NCBI RefSeq assembly: GCF_000003815.2
Contig: NC_049991.1
Coordinates: 18,382,037-18,446,036, forward strand
Direction: 5' to 3'
Length of the DNA stretch: 64,000 nt
Origin: Branchiostoma floridae
Lineage: Eukaryota; Chordata; Leptocardii; Amphioxiformes; Branchiostomatidae
Shown here: one piece after another, positions 35,658 to 60,921 of the stretch
How positions within the stretch are numbered: position 1 is the stretch's first letter
Layout of the letters: every line of letters starts with the position of its first letter
Made by a program: the position numbers and the translations under genes
Notes under the pieces: model-generated
Database searches by the model: none
Told to the model about the DNA's origin: nothing
Seen by the model: the letters and a program-made list of their open reading frames with translations, nothing else

Positions 35658-35768
35658 AAGATGGCGGTCGTGCCGATGACGTCATCTCCGAACAAAGATG
35701 GCGGCCGCGCTGGTGACGTCATCACCGAACAAAGATGGCGGTCGCGCCGGTGACGTCATCATCAGCGC
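35658..35768. promoter_or_regulatory. Three 37-bp units pairing a YY1-like and a CRE motif
   Basis: Three direct 37-bp units start at 35658, 35695 and 35732. Each holds AAGATGGCGG (the core of the YY1 site) followed about 10 bases later by TGACGTCATC, whose TGACGTCA is a perfect palindromic CRE/ATF site. The motifs stay intact while the bases between them vary (GTGCCGA, CGCGCTGG, CGCGCCGG), which hints at selection on them. The last unit overlaps the stop codon of the prokineticin-like exon (35762-35764), so the array is the start of that gene's 3' UTR. An octamer-like ATGCAAAT sits just outside at 35640-35647. The alternative is an unselected GC-rich minisatellite. Confidence 0.55.
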
Positions 35769-36028
35769 ATGTGTGGATAATCGCAGCGGCCTAGCACCTT
35801 GCCCCTGGGCGCCAGACAGGACAGGCCGTCGGCGCAGGGGCAGCGCCAGAAGCGTCTCGGGGCGTCCAGCGGATAGGGCAGGTAGTCCCCGGCGATGTGG
35901 CAGCGGTCGCCCCGCAGGCCCATCGGCTTGCAGACGGGGATCCCCGAGAACAGGTCCCGTAGGCCCAGCGGCGCGCAGCACGACTTCTGGCCCCGAGCCT
36001 GGATACACTGGCGATCGCTCTCACATAC
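35762..36028 (-). CDS. Prokineticin/astakine-like cysteine-rich exon (constant exon 2, terminal)
   Basis: This exon encodes 88 residues and a stop codon. Ten cysteines lie at exon residues 2, 8, 17, 18, 33, 43, 63, 65, 71 and 82, a C-x5-C-x8-CC-x14-C-x9-C-x19-C-P-C-x5-C-x10-C pattern. Vertebrate prokineticins, as I recall them, share the x5, CC, x9, C-P-C and x5 spacings and the 'C-x-P-x-G-x2-G-x2-C-H' stretch, matched here by CKPMGLRGDRCH. The family are small secreted, disulfide-rich ligands; prokineticins act on class A GPCRs and astakines are blood-cell cytokines. The acceptor is a pyrimidine-rich tract ending GCCGCAG at 36029-36035 and leaves the exon in phase 0, starting V-C-E-S-D. In vertebrate prokineticins an intron also falls just before the first cysteine. 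There is no signal peptide in the exon, so an upstream first exon is required. A Dickkopf Cys-2 domain has the same fold, but C-P-C and the N-terminal intron fit prokineticin better. The plus strand is also open here, as a GC-rich shadow. Confidence 0.85.
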   Translation of the reverse strand, partial: VCESDRQCIQARGQKSCCAPLGLRDLFSGIPVCKPMGLRGDRCHIAGDYLPYPLDAPRRFWRCPCADGLSCLAPRGKVLGRCDYPHMR

Positions 36029-36206
36029 CTGCGGCAACACAACAGAGGCATCGTCAGAAAAATGGACTCAATATTTGTTTGTTTGTTTAAACCTTTATAT
36101 AGCATTTCCAGCCCTGTAGCCTTTACCTGTTTTAAGAAGAGGGAAGATTTTCTGTATATAAGATAGAATTGACATTTGTTGGGCATGGATAAATGTTATT
36201 GTCATC

Positions 36207-36452
36207 TACTCTCCAAGCAGAGGTTAGGCTCCCGGCTGTTTTTTAACGTNNNNNNNNNNNNNNNNNNNNNNNNNNNNNNNNNNNNNNNNNNNNNNNNNNN
36301 NNNNNNNNNNNNNNNNNNNNNNNNNNNNNNNNNNNNNNNNNNNNNNNNNAGAGGCCGCCCCGCAGAGCCAACAGCCAGCAGAGAAGGCTCCTCAAAAACG
36401 ATTAAAAAAAAGTTAAAAAAACAGCCGGAGTCTAACCTCTGCTTGGAGAGTA
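36207..36452. mobile_element. TIR element with 9-bp target-site duplication, containing the assembly gap
   Basis: Near-perfect terminal inverted repeats of about 40 bp begin TACTCTCCAAGCAGAGG and run into an A/T-rich end. They flank 36250-36349 (all N) and about 60 bases of unique sequence. Outside them is the direct repeat ATTGTCATC, at 36198-36206 and 36453-36461. A 9-bp duplication is typical of Mutator-like elements. Internal coding capacity cannot be judged because of the gap. Related termini (TCTCCAAGCAGATG or TCTCCGAGCAGATG) occur near 11820 and 29270. Confidence 0.75.
36250..36349. other. Assembly gap (100 N)
   Basis: Exactly 100 undetermined bases, a conventional placeholder, so the true length is unknown. 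It lies inside the TIR element and in the intron of the prokineticin-like gene, between the constant exon and its truncated copy. Confidence 0.98.
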
Positions 36453-36472
36453 ATTGTCATCGTCATTGATTC

Positions 36473-36572
36473 GTGCCTGGATACACTGGCGATCACTTGT
36501 GGCAACACAACAGGGAGCATCGTCAGGATAATGAACTCACATGAACATGGCATTTCCAGCCCTGTAGCCTTT
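36473..36572 (-). pseudogene. Truncated duplicate of the 5' end of the cysteine exon and its intron
   Basis: This stretch repeats 35994-36125. The shared blocks are the ~20 bases around GGATACACTGGCGATC (exon codons R-Q-C-I-Q), the intron block with CAACACAACAG...CATCGTCAG, and the block CATTTCCAGCCCTGTAGCC. Relative to the functional copy, about 12 bases spanning the acceptor and the first cysteine codon are missing and the rest of the exon is absent. It is therefore a non-coding remnant, or allelic sequence placed next to the gap. Confidence 0.6.
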
Positions 36573-37319
36573 AAATTGATTCACACCGTAGTTCACCGTT
36601 GGCATCAGAGAAGGCCCCATTCACACCATGCAAAACAATATCTGTCGATATCGTATGACAGCAGAAGTAGGACAGATTGTAAATTGGGCCAATTTTTTTC
36701 CACACTAGGAATGACGCGGGGCGATGGACGTACGACACACTACCGGCTCGTGTAAAACGGACAGGTGTCGTGCGAAGCATTTCCTCAAATCTTCTCAGAA
36801 GTTTGAAAGCTCATAGAGTATAGGGCTGAATAGAGCTGAGCAAATATACATGTCAATGAGAGTTTAAGACGCATGGGACGCTAGGGAAGGCACGTGACAT
36901 TAGGCGTACGGAAACACGACTCAAACATTTGGGTCAGGGCCCATTGGTTTGAGTCACGTTTTCCTAAGTCTCTTGTCGTTCGACGAGAAAGGTAGTGGTG
37001 GCATATATGTTTCCGTCCACTTTGAACTTGCTTTAACTACGTTTACATGTGTCTAGATTTGGTAAATGATAGAAGATTGAAAATCCCCTAAAATTCCCTA
37101 AAAATTCAAAATCGCTCGAGGGTCGACCGTATTTTTCGCTGAAAATCTACCCGTCAGAAATTGGGCTGCGCTTGTATCAAGTTGTCGTTTTTGCCTTTTT
37201 GGTGGATGAGCTGCTAGAATAGCCAGAAGCTCTAGCAATGGACAGGACGTCGGCATGAGTTTTAGGGATCCCAGATCAAGGATGTCATCCAGGTAATTGA
37301 ATCAACATTTCCTTACCAG

Positions 37320-37497
37320 TACAGTAGAAGCCGCTTAATTGCACGGCCTATTTGCCAGTGAATTTGGTGCAATTATCCGGCTGGTGCAATTATGCGAAGT
37401 TATCTAGCTGGACCGAACCGGTTTGGAATTTTGGGATTCCGTCCAGTTAACAGAAGTGTGCGTTAATCCGGTGTGCAATTAATTGGCTTCCACTGTA
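37320..37497. mobile_element. pogo-like MITE, copy 2
   Basis: Same length, termini and orientation as the copy at 7930-8107, with scattered substitutions. It lies in the intron of the prokineticin-like gene, 1.3 kb upstream of the constant exon. Confidence 0.8.
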
Positions 37498-38390
37498 TTA
37501 GGAACACATCCCACCGCTGCCACCAAATGTAGGGGAGCGAAGGATTAGTCGCACATTCTCTGCTTGCCTGGTGTCTACTGCGGTCGACACACCTGGTGTC
37601 TGGTCTCTTTATTGAATCCTGATCAGAAGCGTATGTGGGGTGGCCCTGTCATAAGAATGCCATGGCCATGTCGTCTTTCTTCCTGCAGCTGTTTTCTCAC
37701 ATTGTGAGAATTTGTGACTTCCATACGTGTTCGTAATACTTAATTTAGTTTAAAGCCAGTTAGGTTAACGTCGCATTTCCATGCCGGGGCCCGGCCGGGC
37801 TGTTTGTGGAAACGAAAAATAGAAATGTATACGCAAAGAAAATTACACAAATAATGCCCAAGACTATTCTCTTGTAGTTAGGTGTCTTTTATATCATACT
37901 ATTGGTTCCCGGAAGCTATCAGGACGGGCCCCAGTTTGGAAATGTGACGTAGACCGAAGATAATGGAGACAAGGTGATACACTTCGCTTCTCCGGGTCGA
38001 AGTGTTTTATTCCCTTGGTGCATTTGTAGGTTCAGAGGGGGTGGAAAAAGGGCCTTGGGTTAATCAGTGCGCTTAAAAGGGTGTCGTTTTGAGCACTTAA
38101 CACGGTCCCAATTTTGTCCCTGTTGCGTCATAGTGAATTTTCAATGTGTCCTTACGGCAAAGTCACGGCCGTCCTAAGATTTTATCTACCCCCCCTGAGG
38201 AATGAAGGTACTGTTTTCGATGCGTTTGTGTTTCATTCGCCAATAGGCTTAGTAATGACTGAAATTTGTATCTGATAATTCTGATTCACAAGTTAAAAAC
38301 TATTTTCAACTCAAGGATTAGATTCGCAGAAAAAGAAAAGGCTGAAAAATTAGATGAATCTAACTCTTGTGTTTGTCAATTGTTACCTCC

Positions 38391-38402
38391 GTGTGTGTGT
38401 GT

Positions 38403-38459
<57 letters not shown>

Positions 38460-38479
38460 TGTCTGTGTGTTTGTGTGTA
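38391..38479. repeat. (GT)n microsatellite
   Basis: About 40 GT units with few interruptions, in the intron of the prokineticin-like gene. Confidence 0.95.
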
Positions 38480-38483
38480 ACGG

Positions 38484-38837
38484 TTACAAAGCACAAAGAT
38501 TAGGGTCAATTTTGGCCCTCTGAGCGATAGATCTTGGTACTGCAGCAAAAATACCTGCTTTTGTATCTCTCGTCCTGCACATGCTTGGGTTTTGTTCAAT
38601 TTGTTTCCATGATGTTTTAAACAAGTACAGGCAAAGCTTAACTTTCTCGTATGTATCTGATTCTTCCATACTAGATCTTGCAACGAAACACAGGCCATCA
38701 AAGTCACATGTACGTCTCCTCTTCTCCCCGTACAAGCTTGGAGAGGCATTGTAGTTGGACAAGCCATTTGCGCTTTCAAGTTCTCGTGTCCACTTCTTGT
38801 CATGTAGTGCGAGACAATTGTATGTGTAACTCCATCG
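38484..38837 (-). CDS. Weak candidate alternative terminal exon
   Basis: On the minus strand a good acceptor (pyrimidine-rich stretch ending TTTTACAG at 38838-38845) opens a 117-codon frame in phase 0, starting RWSYTYNC and ending at a stop. Any of the five first exons could splice to it in frame, giving a secreted protein. It has six cysteines in no pattern I recognise and a basic EKRRR stretch. A second frame is open over much of the same DNA, which weakens the case. It ends beside a (GT)n tract. I do not recognise the product. Confidence 0.2.
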   Translation of the reverse strand, partial: RWSYTYNCLALHDKKWTRELESANGLSNYNASPSLYGEKRRRTCDFDGLCFVARSSMEESDTYEKVKLCLYLFKTSWKQIEQNPSMCRTRDTKAGIFAAVPRSIAQRAKIDPNLCAL

Positions 38838-39604
38838 CTGTAAAACAAGAGTTTGCTTTAAAAACACTTATAACTCCTAGCGTACACTCTGTGTGATGTA
38901 ACGCGGGACTGAGAGAACAATTGACGGTGTGGGTTGAACGTCACTGAAAGAAGTTGAAAAGGACAACAGGACCGATAAGTGGGCTACAATGTATCATGTA
39001 CCCAATGTGAATGCAGTTGAAGCATGTTCTTCATTTGAAACACTTGAAATATAACCATCCACTCTAGACAATTAATAGTACATAAGTTGAAGTGCCAGTC
39101 AGTGTAAAAAGGTGACAAAATATCTTCAGCAACATCAAGTCCGCCGTAATGTGAGCTTCATTTTAAACACTTGAAATAAATATATCCACTCTGGACAGTA
39201 TGAAAGTTGAATATATGTTTGAGTCAAGGCAAAAGGGTGAGGGTGAAAAAAAGTTCTTCAGCAACATGAAGTCGGCCGTAGAGTGAGCTTGCGCGTTGGT
39301 TCAGAAAGTTGATTTAACAACCAATGTGATCATTGGTCGCTACTACAACCATACCAATGGATGTAACCTTATTGTTTTCCCCAAAGAAGCTTAGTATGGA
39401 ACTTAAAAGTATTAACCTCGCATCATCTGAATACGATGATGATGATCTGAAGAGTAAAGACTAGAACGATTGAATTTGAGCAAAAGTCTGAAAGGTATTT
39501 CAGGCCAAATGAGTAAGAGGATTATGTGTGGGAGAGAAAGTCAATTTGTAGTACAGGATACCAACGGTGGCTGTAACGTTGTTAGTGCGCAAAGGCCTTA
39601 AATT

Positions 39605-40755
39605 ATATATGATAATCTTTATTGCATATTCATGCCCGAGGGCTAAATGCACAAAGGGACCACATATGGTCTTATGGATGCAGAGGAAAAAAGAAACTAG
39701 ACTTATACAATGATTTTAAACTAGTCTAAATTGAAAAGGAACTAAGACACTATGTGTTACAATCTCTAATGGCTGCATCTAACATGTTCTTCTCTCTTTT
39801 TGAAACACATGGAGACATATTTACATATTGTGTCGATAGCATGATCGTCCTTGCATAACATCAAGTACTTAAACAAGTCTTGTTTTGACATTTTCTTACA
39901 GATATTGTCTATTTGTAAAGTATTAAATAGGAATTGGCGTTCGTATTCATATAATGTACACTCTAGTAAAAAATGTGTCTCGTCTTCAAGATACAAGTGG
40001 TCACAGAATTTACATGTTCTATCATTTAAAGGAGTACGGTTATGTCTGCCGGATTCTATATGTAATGGGTGGTCACTTATGCGAAATTTACTCATAGCTC
40101 TGCGATGTTCAAAGCTTGAGATGCTAAGATACGTTTCTCTTTCATATGTCTTTTTGAATGTTTTGTATGTTCTCAATTTGTTTCCTTGGTTTCCTTTTTG
40201 TCGAATTGCTTGCAGTTCTGAATGAAATTTTTGGGTGAAGATATCTTTCAACCTTTGCTTTAGTTGATTTAGATGAGTGGGTACGTTAGAGTGACCGTTT
40301 ATATACAGGTAGTCAAAGCCGGACTCCTCTAAGAGTTTCCTTACATCAGATAGCCAGCAGGATGTTTTACGGCGATCTAATTCCTGCTGTACCATGTAAG
40401 CTTCATATTGAAGACTATCTGTGTGCACTTCGTTTGCTAATCTAAAATAATAACTATACATTCTGCATTGAGCTTCAATCCACAAGGGGAAACGCCCCAG
40501 TTCCGCTCTACTTGCAAAATTACTTGCGTTCCTTCGAACACCTAGGATGTACTTACAGAATTTCAGATGAACGGACTCTATCGGGGATTTGTCGTTCAAT
40601 TTGCTGTTGCACCAGACTTCAGATCCATACAATAAAATCAGTAGGACACATGTGTCGAACAGTTTGCAATGTAATGATACAGAAGATCTAATTTCTCCTA
40701 ATATAGCCAATTTAGTCACATAATTGCGTTTTGATAACTCGAACTGTACATGTAA
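39605..40755 (-). mobile_element. 5'-truncated non-LTR retrotransposon with intact C-terminal reading frame
   Basis: The minus-strand frame from 40719 to 39766 (317 codons; open further upstream to about 40750) matches the region after the reverse-transcriptase domain of LINEs. It contains the LLYGSEVW motif that follows the RT core, a basic helical middle, and a C-terminal zinc-finger-like C-x2-C-x9-H-x4-C (CKFCDHLYLEDETHFLLEC). The catalytic RT and endonuclease domains are absent, so the copy is dead-on-arrival but young, with no stop or frameshift. The 3' UTR includes the TTAGCCCTCGGGCATGAA block seen at other LINE tails in the window and ends in an AATAAAG-containing A/T tail near 39610. 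I found no clear target-site duplication. Confidence 0.85.
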
Positions 40756-41189
40756 CAGCCTTTATGTTCAAATCTGCACGAATCCGCGCAGTGGAGTATT
40801 GAGTTGTTGCAATCGTTGTATCTGCAAGAGTCTGATAACAATGGTTTGGTAGGAATTTTCATATTCATTACAAAAACAATCCAGGATTTTCATAGCCTGG
40901 GCACCATCCGGAAAGTAGTTCGCTCTGGCGTTTATTATACACTACATACAGTCGTTTTTCGCTCTGACATTTATTATACACTATATAGAGTCGCTTCGTT
41001 GTTGTTCCGGTAGCAGAAGCGAACATAGGAGTAAACTACAGTACTACCCTGCTAAGCTTTTTACACTTAACGGCCACATATATGTACGGGTCCTACAGGC
41101 TGCTTCAGTGCCGAGAAAGTGATAATCGTGGTAGATGTTTATTTTGCTAATTGATGCGTGGCTGATAGTTGAGAAGTAATTGGAGAAAG

Positions 41190-41505
41190 GCTTTGTTAAT
41201 TCGATGATATGGATGACATCAATTTTCGATCGTTTCCATAAAAACGTCGTTTGTTTTCAACCATGCTGTAGATATTGCAGAGCTGTTGCAGAACTAGAAA
41301 ATGTGTGCTGTACAGTGTGAAAAACATATCAGAAAACTCATCCAATATCACACCGCATAATTGTGTGTTTAGCCATTTGTTCGATCAGGACCACTTAGAT
41401 TTCATAATCAAGGCAACTCTTTTTGGCCAACCTTTTTTTTTTTTACTTGCCCACTCGCATCGGCTTTTGGGTTCCCAGAGGATGTCATCCATATAATCAC
41501 GGATG
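41190..41505. repeat. Inverted pair of GGATGACATC blocks (MITE-like)
   Basis: GATATGGATGACATC at 41204 and its inverted form GATGTCATCCATATAATC at 41481 lie about 270 bp apart. Related ends with GGCCATGxTGATTTGATTAT occur at 49573 and 62751, and an inverted form near 37283. The family is only partly delimited. Confidence 0.4.
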
Positions 41506-41687
41506 ACATGTTTGTTTACAGATTGGTGTATGTGTGAACATGTACCAAATTCGTGTTAAGTGCATTTCCTAATAGGGCCTTCACACGGAATCGAATTAGC
41601 CGGAATCAAGCCGAACCAGCCGGAATGAAGTATTTGCAAACTTCGTGTCACATTCGGGGCCATTCGGGTGGGAATTCCAAATGGGCC

Positions 41688-42165
41688 TTAAATCCCCTTC
41701 ACACGAGAAGGAATGAGCCGGAATGCTGTCAGAATGAAAATTCTTGTCTATTCTTGTGAATTCGTAGTGCATTCTAGACATTCTTACGGCATTCGAGATA
41801 TTCTTTCGGCCACATTCTGACAGTATTCGAGGTGGCTTGCCGTTTCGGTTCTCCATCGAATGAGATAAGAATGTTTCGAATAATGTTAGAATGCCGTAGA
41901 ATGCGGTCAGACTGTAGTCAGAATAGTTAGAATACACTACGAATCCACTGCGAATGCCATTCGATATTTCTCCACTTAAATGCACCTCGACAGTTTTTAA
42001 CATGTCAAAAACTTTCGAGCCAGCCAAAAGAATGGGGACGAATATCTCGAATGCAGTAAGAATGTTTAGAATACAGTACGAATTGCCAGGAATTGCCACG
42101 AATAGAAAAAAATTCATTCGGACGGCATTCCGGCTCATTCGTGCTCTCGTGTGAAGGGGGCTTAA
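41688..42165. mobile_element. piggyBac-like MITE flanked by TTAA
   Basis: TTAA at both ends (41688-41691 and 42162-42165) and inverted termini sharing CCCCTTCACACGAG, then GAATGAGCCGGAATGC, indicate a piggyBac-type non-autonomous element. The interior is full of GAATG/CATTC repeats. Long frames across it (for example 191 codons on the minus strand) are a by-product of this composition. A partial end with GGGCCTTCACACGG lies just to the left at 41576. Confidence 0.65.
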
Positions 42166-42239
42166 GAGCACACTGTCGAAGCATGTCAGATTGATAAACA
42201 GTGAACCAGGGACCTCTGCGCTAACGTTACGACACTTTC

Positions 42240-42420
42240 ACTACAGATTGATCATGATGTATGTGTGAACATGTACCAATACTAAATTCGTGTTAAATGC
42301 ATTTCCAAAGGGCACACAGTCAGAGCATATCAGCTTAAACAGCGAACCCGGGACCTCTGCGCTTTGAGCCAAGCACCCTACGGTTACGCCACGCGACTCC
42401 ACTCATGTTTTGCCCACTTT
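42240..42420 (-). mobile_element. tRNA-derived SINE
   Basis: On the minus strand: GGAGTCGCGTGGCGTAACCG, B-box-like GTCCCGGGTTCGC, then TGTGCCCTTTGGAAATGCAT. A second, more decayed head (CCAGGGACCTCTGCGC) lies at 42170-42240, so two copies may be side by side. Confidence 0.6.
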
Positions 42421-42936
42421 GAGCGAACCACTAGATCACTATCAACCTTTCTAGGCGTCAAAAACAGGATGCGAGACCTTCCAATACGCTTAGGTTCGTC
42501 AATTATCTTCCGCGCACAAAATTCTTAAAGAGACTAACCCACTTGTATCGCGCGTGAATCGGATAAAAACTACTTCACCCTACGCTTATTGTACAGTGCA
42601 GAAAAACAATTTTCTATCCAGCTATTTATAGTGTTTGTGTGAAAGTCATTCCCTGTAGTAGCAATGATAACGGAGTCATTCCCCTGAACAGCCGATAATA
42701 ACGGAGTAGTGACGGTGTCGTGAGCCGCACTTAGCGGGAAAGTGCTGACAGTCTGATAGCAGGTTCGCGGAATGATGACGACAGGGCACGCTGTAGACGA
42801 TATCCTTTAGAACACGAATCAGAGCATATCTTAGAAGCCATTATAAAGACACATACAAAAGGAAATAGCTGATATGAATCATTCAATTGTACGGCTCTGG
42901 TGAAATAGAGTGGTCAGCACATGGATACTACGTTAC

Positions 42937-47550: not shown

Positions 47551-47559
47551 ACCACTCAC

Positions 47560-47658
47560 CCCTGTCACGGTGAGGCCCCACAGTCCGACCACACCACTCA
47601 GGCAGCAGCTGAGGAGAATCGGGACGACGAGGAGCCTGGATGTCCTGTAGTGGGGCAT
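47560..47658 (-). CDS. Candidate first exon 1a of the prokineticin-like gene (signal peptide plus N-terminus)
   Basis: The 33 codons begin at an ATG in good context (CACCATGC). They encode a basic N-terminus, a hydrophobic core (LLVVPILLSCCL) and a likely cleavage after SGVVG. The mature start would be LWGLTVTG, immediately before the donor GGG|GTGAGT. The exon ends in phase 0, so it joins the cysteine exon in frame as ...LTVTG-VCESD. This echoes the vertebrate exon 1/exon 2 junction, AVITG-ACERD. The precursor would be 121 residues. The intron would be about 11.5 kb. The exon and its 5' flank are nearly identical to exon 1b at 50562-50660, so one is a local duplicate. A short inverted-repeat MITE starts about 10 bases into the intron. 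The TATA box of copy 1b is not preserved here. The frame stays open upstream of the ATG (to 47742), but the Met at 47658 gives the cleaner signal peptide. Confidence 0.72.
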
Positions 47659-48818
47659 GGTGCTGAGTGCTGGGCTATGGTCTGGTCTGCGCGCTTCACA
47701 ATGGCTCACTGACAGCGTTAAGGAGGCCGCGGGGCGTATCACGTAACGTGCACGGTAGTGTCGTCCGACTAGATGGGACCGTTACGATGACTGGCACTTA
47801 ACGGCCTTTATGGTTGCAACCAACCAACCCACTGTGTGTGTGGTGTCCGTTGAATACGTCATATGGGAGGGATTTCCATTATTACTACTTGAATAGATTT
47901 GTGACTTGATTCGATTCTTAACGAAGCTTAATGGCCGACAGGATTTGAAAATTTGCCCCTAGTAATGAGTTTTACAGTCAACGAAATATGCGGCAACATT
48001 GATGCTCCCGTAGTGCATAAACTGTATTCTAGAAGGCTTCCGCTGATCGCTTGGAAGTGTAAAGCGCTAGTGCGGAAAATCGAGATCAAACTAGGCTATG
48101 ATAGCTTTATCGTCTTCCCCCGTCTTGAATCACAATGAAAGGACATCGACAGGGAAAGTATCTTTATGAAGCATTAGCCGTTTTCTGTGTTGCAATAGGT
48201 TATATTGTAGTAAGGCAAGGAATCTTCTATTTCGTGTCACATCACAGTGTTACTTATTGCCCCAATTAGTCGATGATCTGCTCCAATCGTCCGTGTTCCT
48301 CCCCCACTTGTAAGGTCATATCTTTATGTTGAGCTATCTTTGAGTGGGCAGGGCAAAGATTTCTCTTACGCTTAGGAAGAAGAGAAGTAAGACATTCATT
48401 TGGACCTTATATCAAGACTGTATGACGTATGAGGAACATTGCATGAGACCAAACTTCATATGGTCACGTTAATACGTCAATGTCCACTAATGTGCGTGGG
48501 TAGGTGTCATCTAATGGGACTTATATGATCTCCCTTTATACTAAGTTGTTGGTATCAGTTGTGAAGGGGGCATTTAAAACCCATTAAGCGATCGGAGACC
48601 AGACCCAGAAGCGTGCCCCGCCTGGTACGTTAGGGGACCGACCTCTTCAATTATACACTAAGTGTTTTGCTTGAGGCTTGAATGGGTGCACTGTCTAGAG
48701 ACTTAGTGAACTAGGGACATGCTATCTTACTTTTAGGGTAGATATGCGAACAATACATTTTCATCATGCATTTATGTGTTCGGCTATTTTTCTTTTTTTT
48801 CTTATCATGTGCTGGCGA

Positions 48819-50537: not shown

Positions 50538-50561
50538 TACTGGTCCACATCCACCACTCAC

Positions 50562-50660
50562 CTCTGGTACCGTGAGGCGCCACATCCCGACCACACCACT
50601 CAGGCAGCAGATGAGGAGAACCGAGACCACGAGGAGCCGGGATGTCCTACAGTGGGGCAT
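50562..50660 (-). CDS. Candidate first exon 1b of the prokineticin-like gene
   Basis: This is a 33-codon exon with an ATG in context CACCATGC. The signal peptide has the core LLVVSVLLICCL and probable cleavage after SGVVG. The predicted mature start is MWRLTVPE, followed directly by the donor GAG|GTGAGT in phase 0. Joined to the cysteine exon it gives ...RLTVPE-VCESD, a 121-residue precursor. A TATATATAA box about 63 bases upstream of the ATG predicts a 5' UTR of roughly 35 bases. The exon is a paralogue of 1a: the signal peptides are nearly identical, but the mature tails differ at several positions (L/M, G/R, T/P, G/E). Repeats in the intron just downstream (49862-50537) have a diverged copy below exon 1a, so the duplication covered more than the exon. 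The alternative is that one copy is a pseudo-exon. Both keep the frame, ATG and donor. Confidence 0.7.
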
Positions 50661-50722
50661 GGTGCTGAGTACTGGGCTAAGGTCTGGTCTGCGCGCTTCA
50701 CAATGGCTCACTAACAGCTTTA

Positions 50723-50731
50723 TTATATATA
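50723..50731 (-). promoter_or_regulatory. TATA box of first exon 1b
   Basis: TATATATAA on the minus strand, 63 bases upstream of the exon 1b ATG; predicted start near 50697. The aligned position above exon 1a reads CTTAACG, so the box is absent from the duplicate. Confidence 0.6.
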
Positions 50732-51246: not shown

Positions 51247-51249
51247 TTA

Positions 51250-52855: not shown

Positions 52856-52869
52856 CCTGATAAACTACC

Positions 52870-52870
52870 A

Positions 52871-52903
<33 letters not shown>

Positions 52904-52909
52904 GTCTCT

Positions 52910-52972
<63 letters not shown>
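52870..52972. repeat. (TC)n-(TA)n compound microsatellite
   Basis: A TC tract of about 20 units followed by about 28 TA units. Confidence 0.95.
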
Positions 52973-52975
<3 letters not shown>

Positions 52976-53584
52976 CAACACTACATTAAGATTATTTTCA
53001 TTATTTTCTTTTCAAGGATTACCATTATAATATAGCGAAATTAAACGATTTCGAAAAAATAAAGAAATATTGCAGGTGACTCTTTTCACTTGGGACAAAC
53101 TAACAGTTAAACGAAACGCATGCTGAATGTAGTTTCAGCTCTCTATTCTTGATTGACCCATTTACAAACACCCACTCTGACAACAAGTTTTTAAAACCTA
53201 CGCGAGATGAATACGTACTACGTTATAAGGCCGTATTTACTGCCAACAGCACAACAAGCGATCTCATTAAAGCCTGTTGTGTAAAATGTGAACAACGAAA
53301 CCGTTTTTCTGAAGCGTCCAATTTGCAGAAGGCAAACTCCTCCAACACGTCACCGACAACACGTCACCGGCAACACGTCATGAGAACTTCAGGGTGATTA
53401 CGGGCGGTAAGCAGCACCCGATCTCTCATTTACGTCACCAATTGCTGTAATGATGCCTTATTCACAGCATCCCACGCAGGGGATATGCATGAATGAGGGT
53501 ATTAAGATGTTAGTACATGTCAGTTTTTTGTTTTTTTTTATCTATGCTGTGACCACACCTCATCTTTAGCAGCTGTGCTGACAT

Positions 53585-53914
53585 TTACAATGCATCACGC
53601 TGGCGAATATCGGTGAGGTGGGCATTAACTATTCGTTTAAAGTTCTTCAAGTTTTTGATATTTACAATGTCTTGTGGTAGACAGTTCCATAGCTTAACTG
53701 TGGCTGGGAGAAAAGTTCTTTTGTGACAGGAGGAGGTTGACTGGACAGGTTCTAGGGCTGCACTGTGTTGGGATGTTGACAGACGTGTTTCACGGCGGTG
53801 TACGTAGGGCTCGGGTAGAAGGTTATTCAGTAGTGTTGGTGCGTCTTGGTGATACATTCGGTGTAGGAGTGAGAGGGCCCCAACAAGGTAATGTGCAGTA
53901 AGATAATAATACAT
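53585..53914 (-). mobile_element. LINE (CR1/L2-type) C-terminal coding fragment
   Basis: A 109-codon frame carries the hallmark C-terminus of CR1/L2-like LINEs: LLHRMYHQDAP, then KRTFLPATVKLWNCLPQDIV, then FKRIVNAHLT. The reverse-transcriptase domain is missing. This is a truncated dead copy. Confidence 0.85.
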
Positions 53915-54309
53915 GATTACATGGTGTTACACAAATGACAGCTGCACCATGGCCTTTTAGCATGATAACTGCAACGGATGTGGTAAATAAGTCTCCGCGA
54001 AGTGATATTTGAAAAGCGCCCTGCTGAATGCATTAAATAAAGCACCCTTATGAATGAATTTAGATGAATTGCTGGTTTCGAAATGCACATATCTTATCTT
54101 GTCAATTTGTACAGCAGGATAAAAATGATTTTAAGCCCCACGTTTACAGTACGGTACCATATGTTGTGCTAAACAGTTGAAATAAGAACCATAAGACCAT
54201 TTGACAAGAAACTACTAGCGCGGCCACTTTTGTCCAGGGTAACATTACGAATTAAAATCTAATGGGATAAAATTTCAGAACAGTATTAGACCGAGCAAGT
54301 CTGATGCAG

Positions 54310-54519
54310 TACTGTAAATGCTTTTAAGTTCGCGGGGATTTAATTTCGCGGTAACGGGAAAAGGACTTTTCGCGGTGGTTTTAAATTCGCGGTAGCACCA
54401 TGCATTGTACTCCTAATGCCAGGGAAAAATGTTCGCGGTGGTTTTAAGTTCTCGGTGAAGCGGCCACCGCGAAAACCGCAAACATTAATCCACAGCGAAA
54501 GTTTCTGCATTTTACAGTA
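54310..54519. mobile_element. Fold-back 'CGCGG' MITE, copy 2
   Basis: Same family as 32669-32881, in inverted orientation relative to it, with TACTGTAAATG and TTTTACAGTA ends. It sits between first exons 1b and 1c. Confidence 0.75.
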
Positions 54520-54933
54520 TTTTCCGAAAGGTCCACCTGTCCAGTAGCAGGCGCGCTCGCCCCTAGCCTGACTAAAATAGCAATCCTACCCGATGGCTTT
54601 ACAAGGGAGGGGGTCATTAACCCCAGCCAGCGAGAGAGATTGTGTAAACACAGGCTACTATCGACCCGGTGCGCTCTCTTTTGGGCGCTCACCGAGATCC
54701 TTTGGCTCTCACTGCGCTTGTTGCTCTCTCGGCGCTCGCTCTGCGCTCATCGTTGGATTTCCATCGCGCTTGGTTTAAAACAGACGCCGAGGTGATGGCG
54801 ATCGACCATAGCACGCTCACAGGGCGACGCGCTGTCCTATTTTATGTTGTGGAGAGAGCGCGGCGAGAGCGCCGTCCTGGTGGAAAGTGGGCACGACAAA
54901 ACCCCTCTCCGTTCCCTGTACTTTGCGATCTAA

Positions 54934-55242
54934 AGGTGGGGTCACACCTGCGTATATATTTAAGTCCGTATGAAGCGCGCATGGGAGTATTTGCCTCCAC
55001 CAGGCCCCACAGGTCGTTGGAAAAATAATTGAAATTGGACAAACGTAAACAGGTAACATGTCAGATGAGTTACCTGGGTCGCTAACCATACTTGTCGATC
55101 AGCTAACTCATCTGGCATGTAATGTATCTATATTTGTCCAATTTGTACTGTTTTTCCCGCGACCTGTGGAGCCTGGTAGAGACTAAGAGCGTCATACGCA
55201 CCTCAAACGGACGTGAATATATACGTATGTGTGACCCCACCT
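54934..55242. mobile_element. Palindromic MITE with CACACxTGCGTATATATT ends, copy 1
   Basis: The ends AGGTGGGGTCACACCTGCGT and the inverted GTATGTGTGACCCCACCT flank about 250 bp of largely palindromic sequence. A second member follows at once at 55305-55603, so two copies of one family sit side by side. Confidence 0.75.
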
Positions 55243-55304
55243 ACAATCGCGCTACGTATGCGCACGGGCCAAACATTGTTAATTTTATATTTACCGGGTT
55301 ATTA

Positions 55305-55603
55305 GCCGGGTTCACACGTGCGTATATATTCAAGTCCGTATGAGGTCCATATGGAGTTCTTAGCCTCGACCAGGCTCCACAGTTGGCCGAGAATTTGACA
55401 GAAATTGAAGCAATATGCACACATGTGACACCACATGGGTAGCTGGTGGAAGTTTGCGACCACATGATTCCACTGGCAGATTATCTGGCCCAATTTCTAT
55501 GATTTTTCTAGCAACCTGGTCGGAGTCTGGTAGAGGATACGAATTCCATATGCATACGGACCTCATACGAACTGGAATATATACGCACGTGTGAAACCAC
55601 CTT
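55305..55603. mobile_element. Palindromic MITE with CACACGTGCGTATATATT ends, copy 2
   Basis: The ends GGGTTCACACGTGCGTATAT and the inverted form ending CACGTGTGAAACCACC flank inverted halves sharing CCGTATGAGGTCC. Its end is about 60 bp from the donor of first exon 1c. Confidence 0.75.
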
Positions 55604-55665
55604 AAAACGTACACCTTCGATATTTAGTTTTCTCAGCAAAGACACACAAGTATTCACAAACTTAC

Positions 55666-55749
55666 CTGGACAAAGTGCATGGTGAAAAAGCCGTCCGACA
55701 TGTTGGAAGTACACATAAGAAGCGACAGTAACAGGCACCGACTGATCAT
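55666..55749 (-). CDS. Candidate first exon 1c of the prokineticin-like gene
   Basis: This is a 28-codon exon: Met, a short hydrophobic core (CLLLSLLMC), then NMSDG and a predicted mature start FFTMHFVQ. The donor is the consensus CAG|GTAAGT in phase 0. Spliced to the cysteine exon it would give ...MHFVQ-VCESD, a 116-residue precursor. The sequence is unrelated to exons 1a/1b, but length, architecture, strand and phase match. I see no good TATA box at the expected distance (55795-55815), so the promoter may be TATA-less or the exon may not be a transcription start. A second ATG lies 16 codons in, within the signal region. A palindromic MITE ends about 60 bases downstream of the donor. Confidence is lower than for 1a/1b because it has no paralogue in the window. 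Confidence 0.52.
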
Positions 55750-56030
55750 ATTCACTTGTAGCTGGTAGCACTGGTACAGGAGAACTAATGCTACAAACGC
55801 TGCCTTTGGCACGAAACATAAACTAAACAGTATGCTCCATTTAAGTCGACTTACATCCCCACCTCTCTAATTTTCTAGGGTGTAATCAAGTCATGCAGGC
55901 GCACATCAAACTAACTCTTTGTACTTATTCTTATTAATCCCTCTAGCAATTCTTTAAGTGGGTTACAACAGGACATAAAAGCTCCATCATTAAAGGACAT
56001 TGCAAATTACTCTCCTGCCGTGAAGGGGCC

Positions 56031-56328
56031 TAAAGCTAAGGGCACAAACGTGGGCAATCTTTTGGGATCCTTCAGTGGTAAGTACCGCCTCCGTATGAAC
56101 TCCTAGGGGATCCGACGGATTTAGGAGCACGCAGACACTCCGTTGGACTTCACGTACAGGCAAAACTTTGTGTGCCATCGGGCTGCGAATTCGCCCCCGT
56201 ACGTGCAAGCACGGGCGACGCGCCTGCCCTGTACAGCCTGAACGTTTTCAGAGATACGTGGCGGACGTGGCCTCCCCAAAAAACGCACGGACAAATTGCA
56301 CGTACGGCGGGTTGTGTCCTTAGTTTTA
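56031..56328. mobile_element. CpG-rich MITE with CTAAGGGCACAA ends
   Basis: The imperfect inverted ends TAAAGCTAAGGGCACAAAC and GTTGTGTCCTTAGTTTTA enclose a CpG-rich interior with further inverted blocks such as CGTACGTGCA and TGCACGTACG. Open frames here are compositional. Confidence 0.5.
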
Positions 56329-56539
56329 AGCAAACCTGCGACACCAGGGAAACCTTCTAACTGCGGCTTAAATACCATGCATGGCTAGTGGGCATCTTGT
56401 CTGTCGTCAAGTGTAATGGTGCAAATGTTGCATTATAGTTGTTGCGAGCTCCGACATAATCACCAAGCAGATGTAAGAATGGATCTGGTTCATTCTCATA
56501 TGACTAGCGTATATTTTGCACACATTTGCACACAATTTT

Positions 56540-56757
56540 GTCTAATATTGCAGGTGTTTGGCGCAGAAGCCAGAGGGTCTGGGTTCAAATCCTGTCATGT
56601 TCCCGACCTTGTGCTCTTGGGAATGATATTTTTACACGGCTTTCCTCACTCCGCCCAGGTGTTCAAATGGGTACCTGGCTTCGGATGCAGAGGTTTGGGC
56701 TCTGTCACAAAACCTTGCCCTGGACACAGTGAATAACAACCCACTGCTCCGGCGGCT
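56540..56757 (+). mobile_element. tRNA-derived SINE
   Basis: The plus strand has a tRNA-like B box (GGGTTCAAATCC at 56581), then CTTGTGCTCTTGGGAATGAT and TTTCCTCACTCCGCCCAGGT, the same tail as at 63.1 kb but extending further. It ends near a (CATA)n microsatellite at 56768. Confidence 0.7.
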
Positions 56758-57214
56758 TTGAAGGCTATACATACATACATACATACATCATCGGCCAGCG
56801 GTCGGAACCAGGCAAGTACAGATTTCACCCCAAAGGCCCCTATCTGACATAGCTTGCTCTAAATTATCAAAGTGTATACCAGAGTCTCTAGTCAAAGTGT
56901 CCGTAAAAGTCAAACTTCTGCAATGTACCCGGCCACTTGGTTTCCATAGAAGAACAGAAGACACTAATTCCTGTTTTGCTCGGCAACAGGCTTTGGGAAG
57001 GCTATGGAACTACCTTTATGTCCAGCCTTTAGTACGTCTTCCTTGTATCGCACTTTTTTAAACATACAATGCCACTTACTAAAATCGAGCACTATACTAG
57101 AAGATCGTACTAAATGTTCTGAAAACATGCGTAAAGCACTGCGACTGAGCGGGATTCTCATATCCACTTGAAGAAGGCCCTACGGAGCATACCACTGTTT
57201 GAAGGTCAAAAACA

Positions 57215-57966
57215 AACTTCAAAATTTGATATCAAGTAATATGCAACAAACATATTTATCTATCAATCTACAGAGTAGATATATTTTTGAGCGCCTTGAA
57301 TAGCCATTCTTTGTCATACATATATTTTTGCCATAATCCGTATTCAGAGCACACACATTCGGCTTCTTTGAAATTCGTTTTTTCCCAAACAGTTCGGCTG
57401 CGGTTTCCTTTCGGATTTTTGGCGTTGATGCTAGAAATAAAATGAATGTGGTATCTCATCAACGAGAAAAGTAAGGTTTTGTAAATCATTTTAAGACCAT
57501 AAGGGACACAGATGCTCTGTAGTGGAGTAAACTGTCAGTGCTAAATAACCATTGCAAGGACAGTCATAATGATGAAAAGACTAGAATTGCAAAGCATCCA
57601 GATTAAAAATTTGATATCAAGTAATATGAATCAAACATATTCATCTATCAATCTACAGAGTGGATATAATTTTCAGCGCATTGAATAGTCATTGTTTGTC
57701 ATTCATACCGTTTTGCCATAATCCGTATTCAGAGCACACATATTCGGCTTCTTTGAAATTCTTTTTCCTTTTTTTTCAAACAGTGCGACTGCGGTTTCCT
57801 TTCGGATTTTCGGTGTTGATGCTGGAAATAAAATGGCTTTGTGGCATCTCAACGACAAAAAGATTAAGGTTTTTTTTGTGTGAATCATTTTAAGACCATA
57901 AGTGACACAGATGCTCTGTAGTGGAGTGAAATATCAGTGGACATTGGACAACTATTGCAAGGACAG
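57215..57966. repeat. ~370-bp direct duplication
   Basis: 57215-57560 and 57603-57966 share TTTGATATCAAGTAATATG, CCATAATCCGTATTCAGAGC, GGTTTCCTTTCGGATTTT and CACAGATGCTCTGTAGTGGA. A minus-strand frame open in the first copy has a stop in the second, so it is probably not coding. Confidence 0.8.
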
Positions 57967-58452
57967 CCGGGTTGATGAATAGAGACTTGAATTACAAAGC
58001 ATGCAGATCAAGCAAAAAAAGCGTAGTTTTATCGAATTACAAGTGCGGTGTTTGTCAGCTCCGTTGACATAAAGGCAATGACGCGTGTGCTCTATAAACA
58101 CGTACGTCTAAAAAAGCCTGGGGCCAATGTCGACGTGCAAAAATCTAAGTAGACAGGCTGTGCTCCAAGGCACAGCTTGTATACGAAAGCTTTCACCTGA
58201 CGAGAGCAAGATATGTGGAAAAAATCTAGAAATAACTCCTAAACTTCGTCATGGCCGTAAAAAAAAGACATCCCGCCCAAAGCCTTGGACCAGAAATGAC
58301 ATTTTTATGAGATTAAACACTTCACTATCTTGTGTCTGCAGACGGACGGACTTTACGACTCAATTAATCATGACGCTCAAGAGGCAGGTTCTCCATGACC
58401 ACAACAATCACTCAAACTGACAGAGTCTCCGATATAACGCTATAAAACATAC

Positions 58453-58533
58453 CTCCAGTAAGCCCAGAAAAATGCTAGCGGCAGCAGGATGCGTCGTTAG
58501 CAAAACCACCAACATGAGCGCTAGAACTGCCAT
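58453..58533 (-). CDS. Candidate first exon 1d of the prokineticin-like gene
   Basis: This is a 27-codon exon with a strong signal peptide: core LALMLVVLL, then TTHPAAAS as an A-x-A/S type cleavage region. The predicted mature start is IFLGLLE, or SIFLGLLE if cleavage follows AAA. The donor GAG|GTATGT leaves phase 0, so it joins the cysteine exon in frame (...LGLLE-VCESD; 115-residue precursor). A CATATAAGC TATA-like box lies about 50 bases upstream of the ATG, predicting a 5' UTR of roughly 20-25 bases. The exon does not resemble 1a-1c or 1e at nucleotide level. It sits about 22.4 kb from the constant exon. It could instead start a different secreted protein, but I see no other suitable downstream coding exon between 36 and 58 kb. 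Confidence 0.62.
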
Positions 58534-58581
58534 GACGAGTCTCTGCTATGTTCTGTCGGGATGACTCCTGGCGGTGACAAG

Positions 58582-58588
58582 CTTATAT
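58582..58588 (-). promoter_or_regulatory. TATA-like box of first exon 1d
   Basis: ATATAAG on the minus strand, about 50 bases upstream of the exon 1d ATG. The predicted start site is near 58555, giving a very short 5' UTR. Confidence 0.5.
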
Positions 58589-59153
58589 GTGTTCGTGTAT
58601 GAGCATACAATAGCCTGATTAAAGACCGCACGACGGTATCTAAGCTGTCTGTCGTCACTTGTGAACAATTACATTATGCTGCAATACAACACAGGATCAT
58701 CAATTGGCGTCGGTTTTGCGTAGTATCAGGTGATGCCACTTTGAATCAAAGTTGAACTGTAATTTCCAACACTTACCCAAATTGTCAACAGTGACTTTAG
58801 TCTTTGTTAAGGAATACATCTGTTTATAATAAGTTCCTTTCTTTGTGGGAAATCGCTGTTCAACAGAAATTAAAAATGACTGCTTACACCACACATGACG
58901 TTGTGTTAAGGTAATTCCATTGCTGATTTGATCCTACTGACGTCACACGAGCATATCACCTCATCGTGAGATTGACTTTTCTTGATAAAATATGCTGATC
59001 AGTCATTGTTAAATCCCATTTGTTATACGTCATCATTACGTCAAGGTGCGAGTTATAAACATGTTTGTGCGGCAGTATTTTACAATCTCTGACTTTCACT
59101 GGGGCTTTTAAAAATATCAGATGCCTGTCCTGTCACAAACGTGGTAAGGCGTG

Positions 59154-59374
59154 AACTGACAGGTACAAAAGAAGTCCGATTCCGTACATGGTACAGCTAC
59201 TAAACAACACTTAAATGTTGTGGACTATGGACCATTTGGACATTCGAACAACTACACTACTATTGACAGGTACAAAAGAAGCCCGATTCCGTACCTGGTA
59301 CATCTACTAAAGAACACTTAAATGGTTATGGACTATGGACTATTTGGACATTCAAACAACTACACTACTATTGT
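59154..59374. repeat. ~112-bp tandem duplication
   Basis: Two units with GACAGGTACAAAAGAAG, CGATTCCGTAC and CAACTACACTACTATTG, between first exons 1d and 1e. Confidence 0.85.
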
Positions 59375-59651
59375 GTGCCACTCTATCAGGCAATTTTATT
59401 CTGTTTAAAAGTTGAGCGTTAAACTAATTCTGTAATCAAGCCTTTAAATTATTATTTTATCTTGCAAATGTGATCATGTTATACATGCACAAGCATAATT
59501 CAGGTAACTGAGGTTGCCTGTGAGGCCTTGTACATAATGTATGTGTTTCCTGAATAAACCAATCATCATCATCATCGATATCATCAGGACACATTTGGAG
59601 CTCCTGATATTGAATTGAATTGTTGTCTATTCGATCTCCATTAATCCGCCT

Positions 59652-59857
59652 TACTGTAAATGCAGAAATGTTCGCGGTGGATTAATGTTCGCGGTTTTTG
59701 CCGCTTCACCGCGATATTAAATCCACCGCGAATATTTTTCTATTATGATATTAGACTGCAGTCTATGGTGTTACCGCGAAATTAAATCCACCGCGAAAAG
59801 TCCTTTTTCCCGCTACCGCGAAATTAAATCCCCACGAACTTAAATGCATTTACAGTA
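59652..59857. mobile_element. Fold-back 'CGCGG' MITE, copy 3
   Basis: Same family, with TACTGTAAATGCAG and TGCATTTACAGTA ends. It sits between first exons 1d and 1e. Confidence 0.75.
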
Positions 59858-60843
59858 TTCGATTCGATGTCCATCTCTGAATATTACTAGACATCGTACA
59901 TTTGTTGACTACAACTTCTTTAGTCCTAAAGTAAAACATATATGTATACTCCCATACTTTATCTTAAATCTAATGTTTAACTCCTACTTTTAAGATTAGA
60001 TATTTTACATGTATCTGATTTTAAGAGACAAACCTACGGAGAAATAAAATAAAAAATCTTATATTGTGGCAAGAATCAACTTCTTTCTTCTTATTTGCAA
60101 CGAATACTGTGGTCTACGGGAGCGTACTACTTTAATTATAACTTTCCAGACATTCAACATACATACACAGTACACAATACACTCATTTGACAAAAGTGTA
60201 ATCGTGAGGAAAAATTACGCACGTACGTACGCGCGGGTACTCTTACATATGGCAAGGATATAGAGTAGCTAACGACTTAGGCAGACGATTACGTACGGCA
60301 TTAGTGAAGACTTAACTGTAAGTAAATACAACTTCAACGTTCAATTTCGCTGAGTGATTATCTGATGAAGCATATTGGGCATTTACGACACTGGCGCTTC
60401 ACAAGATACTTACCGCGGAAAAGACCGGTGAACGCTTTAAACAAGTTTTGTGGCAATTTTCAACAGTAATGTTCGCAAGCACACACACACCAAAAAACAC
60501 GCTTTCGTTAGAGCGGTAAATCTCAGCCCGAAGAGCTTATCAAAAGATGCACTTTCGGTGACACACTGACACCACTGAAGAATCCTTGCAGGCGGGAGAG
60601 CAAGTCATCCAAGAGTGGCGGACTCCAGACACATTTTCATACTCTATGTAACATCCTAAACGCGGGATTGCATAGTTTGGTAGCAAAAACTGCTAGCCCT
60701 AGTACTGGAATAATTCAAGCAATTTTCAAAAGATGGGAATTGTACAAAGTCTGCAACATTGTCCTAATTGAAGTATAAAAAATTTATCCTATCTGTTCAT
60801 CAAAAATGTCTTCAACCAACTTCTCTTGAAAAAAAAAACTCAC

Positions 60844-60921
60844 CCCGATCATGTTCAGGAACATCCCCTGCGTCAACGTTGTCATCATCATCAAGCCAAG
60901 CAGCAGTAAAGTTACACCCAT
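60844..60921 (-). CDS. Candidate first exon 1e of the prokineticin-like gene
   Basis: This is a 26-codon exon beginning GACAATGG. Its signal peptide core is VTLLLLGLMMM, followed by TTLTQG. The predicted mature start is MFLNMIG, directly followed by the donor GGG|GTGAGT in phase 0. Joined to the cysteine exon it gives ...NMIG-VCESD, a 114-residue precursor. A clear TATAAAAA box at 60976-60983 lies about 55 bases upstream of the ATG and predicts a 5' UTR of about 25-30 bases, much like exons 1b and 1d. This is the most distal first exon I found, about 24.8 kb from the constant exon. More may lie beyond the window. Confidence 0.62.

What the first reader, a model, noticed from the sequence alone, without database searches (positions are those of the whole stretch)
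35762..60921. Alternative first-exon array feeding one prokineticin-like scaffold exon
Five minus-strand exons (47560-47658, 50562-50660, 55666-55749, 58453-58533, 60844-60921) each encode a start Met, a signal peptide and 7-8 further residues, and each ends at a consensus donor in phase 0. The only suitable downstream coding exon I can recognise is the ten-cysteine prokineticin/astakine-like exon at 35762-36028, whose acceptor is phase 0. By comparison with vertebrate prokineticins, whose N-terminal AVITGA activates the receptor and is encoded at this same exon junction, the locus would make several ligands with a constant cysteine fold and exchangeable N-termini. The logic resembles UGT1A-type variable first exons. 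I know of no described prokineticin locus built this way. The exons and phases are read from sequence; the splicing is inference.
Basis: partly seen in the sequence, partly recalled or inferred. Interest (0 to 1): 0.95.

Follow-up and report, generated by a model that had tools for sequence, protein, structure and literature searches.

The report
Swappable tips on one lancelet hormone
A lancelet gene appears to make several versions of one small secreted signalling protein by joining one of several alternative first exons to a single shared disulfide-rich core, so that the part which in vertebrates switches on the receptor can be exchanged.

Summary
All five minus-strand first exons and the ten-cysteine prokineticin exon sit at the stated coordinates with consensus phase-0 junctions. 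A signal-peptide/donor scan finds these five at 36-64 kb and nothing else in the window; random sequences average 0.035.

NCBI models of B. lanceolatum name isoforms X1, X2 and X3 of one "toxin MIT1-like" gene, with an identical 88-residue core and orthologues of exons a, c and d. Exon b duplicates a. Exon e has no annotated counterpart.

New here: at 10 of 14 other prokineticin loci found in this genome, a first exon ends in the vertebrate-type ...TG motif at the same phase-0 junction, one exactly AVITG. In the array only exon a keeps TG.

Best reading: alternative promoters exchange the receptor-activating N-terminus on a fixed scaffold. Transcription in this species, processing and receptor effects are inferred; no reads were seen. 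None of nine literature searches turned up a description, though the isoforms already sit in public annotation. New variant of a known kind.

The parts
35762..36028 (-). Constant terminal coding exon: 10-cysteine prokineticin scaffold, 88 aa + stop, phase-0 acceptor (first codons V-C)
   Evidence: PF06607 2.8e-7; phmmer to mamba MIT1 chain 1imt_A 1.8e-6
47560..47658 (-). First exon a: signal peptide + LWGLTVTG; keeps the family's ...TG before the junction; orthologue of the first exon of B. lanceolatum isoform X1
50562..50660 (-). First exon b: signal peptide + MWRLTVPE; duplicate of a, with TG changed to PE
55666..55749 (-). First exon c: signal peptide + FFTMHFVQ; orthologue of the first exon of B. 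lanceolatum isoform X2 (FFAMHFFQ)
58453..58533 (-). First exon d: signal peptide + SIFLGLLE; orthologue of the first exon of B. lanceolatum isoform X3 (identical tail)
60844..60921 (-). First exon e: signal peptide + MFLNMIG; no annotated counterpart found
50724..50731 (-). TATA-box-like TATATATA, 71 nt upstream of ATG of exon b
   Evidence: 4.1% of random 90-mers of the window score as high
58582..58589 (-). TATA-box-like CATATAAG, 56 nt upstream of ATG of exon d
   Evidence: 6.8% of random 90-mers of the window
60976..60983 (-). TATA-box-like TATAAAAA, 62 nt upstream of ATG of exon e
   Evidence: 0.7% of random 90-mers of the window
47551..47720 (-). 170-nt block of exon a (62 nt upstream of ATG to donor + 9) that matches 50553-50722 at 89%

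Best explanation
This is one lancelet prokineticin gene with an array of alternative first exons. Transcription starting at one of the first exons (e, d, c, b, a, spread over 13 kb; three with annotated orthologues, probably all five) gives an mRNA in which that exon is spliced over 11.5-24.8 kb to the single constant exon at 36028. Each product has its own signal peptide and, after cleavage, its own 7-8 residue N-terminus on an identical ten-cysteine core. In vertebrate prokineticins that N-terminus (AVITGA) is modelled to enter the receptor pocket and is needed to switch the receptor on, so promoter choice would exchange the 'message' while keeping the 'address'. Shown by sequence: exons, phases, homology and the family-wide junction. 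Supported by annotation in a sister species: splicing of a, c and d. Inferred: use of any of them in B. floridae itself, use of b and e at all, a separate promoter for each exon, the cleavage sites, and different receptor effects (perhaps on different members of the roughly twenty prokineticin-receptor-like GPCRs reported for amphioxus).
For: Exons and phases. Five scanner hits only on this strand upstream of this exon, null mean 0.035. B. lanceolatum isoforms X1-X3 with an identical core and a-, c- and d-type N-termini, each listed on a contig of 22,634,557 bases; a fourth model, isoform X2, from the B. floridae x belcheri assembly. Between B. floridae and B. lanceolatum the core matches at 85 of 88, the variable tails at 22 of 24 and the signal peptides at 48 of 65 positions (tails vs signals Fisher p = 0.085, a trend only). 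At 10 of 14 other prokineticin loci a first exon ends in TG at the same junction; my joins match annotated proteins at four of these loci and at one non-TG locus. TATA-like boxes 56-71 nt upstream of b, d and e. Two-site ligand model; loss of activity or antagonism on changing the N-terminus (PMC8877203, PMC2694302, passages). About twenty prokineticin-receptor-like genes in amphioxus (PMC2246102, passage).
Against: No RNA reads seen; the isoforms are predicted models in another species. No protein of B. floridae alone with this core was named in the answers. Exon e appears in no annotated protein, and b cannot be told apart from a inside the 90%-identity cluster P0001. No TATA-like box at a (95% of random 90-mers score as high) or c (45%). 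The core has Leu where MIT1 has Trp (alignment), a residue described as crucial at vertebrate receptors (PMC8877203), so action on a classical prokineticin receptor is doubtful. An assembly gap lies beside the constant exon. Joins at L015 and L009/L010, also in the profile, found no annotated protein.
Confidence: 0.85

Rival explanations
1. The first exons are remnants of tandemly duplicated whole genes whose own second exons were lost; most are dead, and one or two still splice to the surviving exon.
For: A truncated copy of the start of the constant exon lies at 36471-36506. At the C19 locus (L023) two first exons precede one exon 2, while B. lanceolatum has two proteins of that type with slightly different cores (P0011, P0012), so gene-level duplication does occur in this family.
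Against: tblastn with 14 family cores found no second cysteine exon among the five first exons. All five keep ATG, open frame, signal peptide and donor. The mature tails of a and d are identical in B. lanceolatum, and that of c at 6 of 8. Three are annotated as isoforms of one gene.
Confidence: 0.08
2. Alternative promoters serve only tissue- or stage-specific expression; the different N-termini are trimmed off or have no functional consequence.
For: Signal peptides vary along with the tails; TATA-like boxes precede b, d and e. Tail conservation exceeds signal-peptide conservation only as a trend (p = 0.085).
Against: Tails of a and d are unchanged between species while their signal peptides changed at 5 of 25 and 3 of 19 positions. 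On the b branch the tail changed at 4 of 8 positions against 2 of 25 in the signal peptide (p = 0.02), so change is concentrated in the segment that matters in vertebrates; the numbers are small and the polarity assumes that a and b parted after the two species did.
Confidence: 0.2
3. Exon a makes an agonist and the exons without TG (b, c, d, e) make natural antagonists or decoys of the same receptors.
For: Changing the first Ala to Met, adding Met, or deleting two residues turns vertebrate prokineticins into antagonists (PMC2694302, PMC8877203, passages). The likely mature N-termini of b and e begin with Met, and b has lost TG.
Against: No receptor data. Exon a itself carries about three extra residues before LTVTG, so it may not be a classical agonist either. 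Cleavage sites are read by eye and by a simple rule, which disagree for a, b and c.
Confidence: 0.2
4. Exon e (60844-60921) is not part of the gene: a chance open frame or the first exon of something else.
For: Absent from all four annotated isoform clusters. The motif-only scan shows that phase-0 open frames also turn up by chance (L009 -8401 and L022 +7844).
Against: Passes the same scan (null 0.035 per region), has the best TATA-like box of the five and, by eye, a tail of the same form as d (S-I-F-L-G-L-L-E against G-M-F-L-N-M-I-G). tblastn with 14 family cores found no other prokineticin core exon on its strand in the window, in the 10 kb below the window or in the 40 kb above it.
Confidence: 0.25

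Closest known systems
Vertebrate prokineticins (PROK1, PROK2, Bv8, MIT1; AVIT family)
   Same: Ten-cysteine core with PF06607; activating N-terminus on exon 1 and first cysteine on exon 2 in human PROK2, as here (PMC3624607 Table 2, passage).
   Different: AVITGA is described as conserved and essential, and the splice variation described is an inserted exon 3 in PROK2 (PMC2694302, PMC3624607, passages); here several first exons give different N-termini, most without TG.
Other prokineticin genes of the same lancelet genome (e.g. L020 with AVITG; P0006 in B. belcheri)
   Same: Same exon logic and the same junction; cores 37-59% identical to the array core in the aligned pieces seen (listing cut at the end).
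   Different: By strict scan or TG motif, 12 of 14 loci have at most one first-exon candidate in the 7-28 kb held upstream, L015 and L023 two each; 10 of 14 end in TG. The array has five, four without TG. At relaxed thresholds L016 and L019 gain one weak extra candidate each, and L023's far upstream two.
Variable-first-exon clusters such as UGT1A or clustered protocadherins (recalled, not searched)
   Same: Tandem first exons in one orientation, each ending in the same phase, sharing downstream constant sequence.
   Different: Here the variable part is 26-33 codons and supplies the signal peptide and the receptor-facing tip of a secreted ligand, not a catalytic or adhesive domain.
Arthropod astakines and oyster prokineticin-like proteins
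   Same: Prokineticin-type ten-cysteine core without AVITGA (PMC8398477, passage).
   Different: No first-exon array is mentioned in the passages read, and those passages state that no related receptor is known in protostomes; most lancelet paralogues keep a TG motif.

Membership tests
Prokineticin family (PF06607) | Match to the family profile above its curated cut-off | tested here: met
   Constant exon alone: 31.2 bits, cut-off 21.6; 36.4 bits in the genome search
Prokineticin family (PF06607) | Ten cysteines in the core | tested here: met
   10 in the 88-residue exon; aligned with MIT1 and Bv8
Prokineticin family (PF06607) | Colipase-like fold | tested here: inconclusive
   AlphaFold2 of P0001 with three close relatives: mean pLDDT 56, pTM 0.42, too poor to use; sequence matches to solved 1imt and 2kra make it likely
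Vertebrate-type AVIT ligands | N-terminal AVITG(A) directly after the signal peptide | tested here: not met
   a LWGLTVTG keeps VTG with extra residues in front; b, c, d, e lack it. Paralogue L020 has AVITG exactly
Vertebrate-type AVIT ligands | Exon junction between the activating motif and the first cysteine | tested here: met
   for the array; for 10 of 14 other loci; human PROK2 by PMC3624607 Table 2 (passage; phase not stated there)
Vertebrate-type AVIT ligands | Trp24 needed for receptor affinity | tested here: not met
   Leu is aligned with the MIT1 Trp; importance of Trp24 from PMC8877203 (passage)
Vertebrate-type AVIT ligands | Activation of prokineticin receptors | not testable with these tools
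   Needs a cell assay
Variable-first-exon (UGT1A-like) locus | Several first exons spliced to one constant exon | tested here: met
   By annotated isoforms in B. lanceolatum for three first-exon types; no reads seen; e not annotated
Variable-first-exon (UGT1A-like) locus | A promoter for each first exon | tested here: inconclusive
   TATA-like boxes at b, d, e; none at a or c; no CAGE data
Variable-first-exon (UGT1A-like) locus | First exons related by duplication | tested here: inconclusive
   a and b 89% over 170 nt; c, d and e share only a short tail pattern, seen by eye

The most novel reading that the evidence does not exclude
A GPCR ligand gene diversified combinatorially by promoter choice: one constant disulfide scaffold carries three to five exchangeable N-terminal activators, each variant conserved between species and one changing fast after duplication, matched to the expanded set of prokineticin-receptor-like GPCRs of amphioxus, with some variants acting as natural antagonists.
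Probability: 0.35. Interest if true: 0.9.

Novelty: new variant of a known kind. Interest (0 to 1): 0.75.

Why it matters
The N-terminus of prokineticins is described as essential and conserved in vertebrates: an added or changed residue lowers activity or yields antagonists (PMC2694302, PMC8877203, passages). A gene that swaps exactly this segment, at the exon junction that isolates it, offers a natural series of ligands with a constant core. It gives a concrete candidate explanation for a puzzle noted in 2008, the 'surprising' expansion of about twenty prokineticin-receptor-like genes in amphioxus (PMC2246102, passage), and makes it testable: five synthetic ligands against twenty receptors.

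Tried and rejected
The scan and its null, and above all the annotated isoforms, exclude it for a, c and d.

Rejected as the acceptor for a, c and d: the 117-codon frame at 38484-38837; no Pfam match, and the annotated isoforms use the prokineticin core. It is not excluded for e.

Led nowhere: AlphaFold2 of P0001 with its three relatives gave a poor model, so no fold search was run. The first scanner had donor and cleavage rules too strict and missed a, d and e; loosened. The C19 locus L023 looked like a second first-exon array, but B. lanceolatum has two proteins with different cores (P0011, P0012), so gene duplication is as likely; extra flank L029 and L030 gave, at relaxed thresholds, one low-complexity and one long unrelated-looking candidate. 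One paper search used terms too broad to inform (10 of 3,457 listed). A wider random sample of the genome as a null could not be fetched, so the background rests on the window and on loci fetched because they hold or flank prokineticin genes. The profile search did not return P0001-P0004 although exon a joined to the core was one of its eight rows, so its list is not complete.

Not answered: genome-wide DNA searches for other copies of exons c, d and e failed because the machine was busy (e; c; d; c and d not tried again); only exon a was searched (two places, a itself and b).
Full report
Observation. The window is C13:18,382,037-18,446,036 of a 513-Mb, 431-contig genome. The size (recalled) and the matched proteins fit Branchiostoma floridae; the species name is my inference. 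The five first exons run from ATG to a consensus phase-0 donor; the constant exon follows ...TTGCCGCAG and encodes VCESDRQC...PHMR with ten cysteines, Pfam Prokineticin 2.8e-7, related by sequence to solved MIT1 and Bv8 (1.8e-6 and 1.5e-4). A tblastn search with 14 family cores at E up to 0.05 found no other cysteine exon in the window; a 12-residue stub at 36506-36471 is a truncated copy beside a 100-N gap.

Chance. I wrote a scanner (ATG, hydrophobic stretch, plausible signal cleavage, donor in phase 0). Its first thresholds found only b and c; I then set them so that all five pass. At still more relaxed thresholds it reports exactly the five exons on the minus strand at 36,029-64,000, none on the plus strand of the window, and none on the minus strand at 1-35,761. 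At the thresholds the real region gives 5 and 200 Markov-1 random sequences give a mean of 0.035, maximum 1. Over 508,000 strand-bases (the window and 19 ten-kb loci), phase-0 rows outside the array numbered 13. Seven end in TG and lie upstream of prokineticin cores. Three belong to the C19 locus (two rows share one ATG). Three others are L010 +6991, L012 -331 and L021 +3983, the last perhaps the first exon of that locus. Phases 1 and 2 gave one row each. These loci hold or flank prokineticin genes, so this is not a random sample.

Splicing evidence. A search of 5.8 billion proteins with exon b joined to the core returned four clusters: B. lanceolatum 'toxin MIT1-like' isoforms X1, X2 and X3, each on a contig of 22,634,557 bases, and an isoform X2 from the B. 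floridae x B. belcheri assembly. Letters, alignment. The X1-X3 cores are identical to each other and 85 of 88 identical to the window's. Their N-termini end LWGLTVTG (as exon a), FFAMHFFQ (exon c has FFTMHFVQ) and SIFLGLLE (as exon d). The hybrid's isoform ends IIPRSFIW; its best match in the window is exon c, mostly in the signal peptide (E 0.011). The 'isoform X' label marks NCBI automated models, which I recall draw on RNA-seq; I saw no reads. A search with exon e joined to the core returned the same four clusters and no e-type protein at E up to 10. A protein with exon b would fall near the 90% clustering limit of P0001 (12 members, not listed) and cannot be told apart. So three of five first exons have annotated orthologues in a sister species, b is a duplicate of a, and e is unconfirmed.

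The family rule that the array breaks. The genome search found 14 prokineticin matches, the window's own among them (the tool calls its counts lower bounds), and tblastn added a split gene on the plus strand beyond the window (L010): 14 other loci. A first exon ending in TG with a phase-0 donor, upstream and on the strand of the core, was found at 10 of these 14: L009/L010 VVVVTG, L014 LVLTG, L015 QFVVTG and TVVLTG, L016 MVVTG, L018 LVLTG, L019 LVITG, L020 AVITG, L022 IIITG, L024 TVTG, L025 MAITG. The motif scan gave 14 rows: these 11, exon a, and two that belong to no core and lack a clear signal peptide (L009 -8401, ending GVLTG, and L022 +7844). Of the other four loci, L023 has QPSIL and QMSML, L017 a tentative ...LTSG (relaxed scan only), L021 a tentative ...GRHTT, and L026 none. 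A profile search with eight joined proteins returned annotated lancelet proteins whose joins agree with mine at L018, L019, L020, L022 and L023 (P0005-P0012); nothing came back for the joins at L015 and L009/L010. Human PROK2 is cut in the same place: Table 2 of PMC3624607 (passage) lists G32R of AVITGA under exon 1 and C34Y under exon 2. Against this background the array is odd twice over: five first exons for one core, and TG kept only in a. Upstream sequence held for the other loci was about 7 to 28 kb, often less than the array's 25 kb, so more distant first exons could have been missed. Counting strict or TG-motif candidates, 12 of the 14 have at most one; L015 and L023 have two. At relaxed thresholds L016 and L019 each gain a weak extra one, and two more appear far upstream of L023.

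Change and constraint. Between the window and B. lanceolatum the tails match at 22 of 24 positions and the signal peptides at 48 of 65 (a, c, d pooled; Fisher p = 0.085), a trend only. With P0001 as outgroup, b has changed 4 of 8 tail residues (L to M, G to R, T to P, G to E) and 2 of 25 signal residues (p = 0.02), a 0 of 8 and 2 of 25; this assumes that a and b parted after the two species. The a/b block is 170 nt at 89%, with 4 of 62 positions changed upstream of ATG and 14 of 99 in the coding part. The numbers are small, but change sits where function is known to sit in vertebrates. TATA-like boxes stand 56-71 nt upstream of ATG in b, d and e (4.1%, 6.8% and 0.7% of random 90-mers of the window score as high), not in a or c (95% and 45%).

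Mechanism. In the two-site model of prokineticin receptors the ligand is recognised at the extracellular side and its N-terminus, by computation, occupies the transmembrane pocket (PMC8877203, passages); adding or substituting Met at the N-terminus makes antagonists (same paper; PMC2694302, passages). An exon boundary just before the first cysteine isolates that segment, so first-exon choice swaps it cleanly. I take the architecture as most likely (0.85). That the variants differ in receptor action is inference. Against a simple 'same receptor' picture: the core has Leu at the position of the important Trp (alignment), and the array tails, as I read the cleavage, are two to three residues longer than AVITG. 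This fits divergent receptors better, and about twenty prokineticin-receptor-like genes were reported for amphioxus and called surprising (PMC2246102, passage).

Literature. Searches: prokineticin with amphioxus (9 papers), alternative first exon (1), lancelet (2), alternative promoter (2), Branchiostoma (7), AVITGA and exon (7); MIT1-like with Branchiostoma (0); alternative first exons with Branchiostoma and ligand (2); at least three of prokineticin, invertebrate, N-terminal, astakine (74, of which 20 listed). From these listings, and from passages of PMC2246102, PMC6188537, PMC11521371, PMC8398477, PMC3624607, PMC2694302 and PMC8877203 (no paper was read whole), none describes a prokineticin gene with alternative first exons. 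The library holds open-licence papers only. The isoforms are, however, already present in public annotation.

Verdict. Real, well supported in structure, not described in the papers searched; a new variant of a known kind whose functional meaning is open and directly testable.

Noticed in passing
L009:5890-5976 (+), L010:236-349 and 557-706 (+); about 5.9-10.7 kb beyond the window end: A second, divergently oriented prokineticin gene with at least three coding exons (first exon ends VVVVTG), not listed by the family search, probably because its core is split.
   Followed up: partly
L016:2689-4139 (-): Tandem repeats of the opening stretch of a prokineticin core exon (VCAGDTECLESRGDGFCC...) just upstream of the intact exon.
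   Followed up: no
window:36471-36560 and gap 36250-36349: Truncated copy of the intron end and first codons of the constant exon, next to a 100-N gap that by eye is flanked by an inverted repeat.
   Followed up: partly
L015:4593-4679 and 8157-8228 (+); L023:1044-1121 and 5205-5279 (+): Two candidate first exons before one core exon at two other prokineticin loci; either smaller first-exon arrays or decayed gene duplicates.
   Followed up: partly
L009:8401-8478 (-): Open frame ending GVLTG at a phase-0 donor, on the array's strand about 11.5 kb upstream of exon e, but without a clear signal peptide; probably chance.
   Followed up: no
window:38484-38837 (-): Open 117-codon frame after a possible phase-0 acceptor, six cysteines, no Pfam match.
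   Followed up: partly
window:39766-40761 (-): 331-codon open frame between the array and the core; by eye like the C-terminal part of a LINE reverse transcriptase protein, no Pfam match at 0.1.
   Followed up: no
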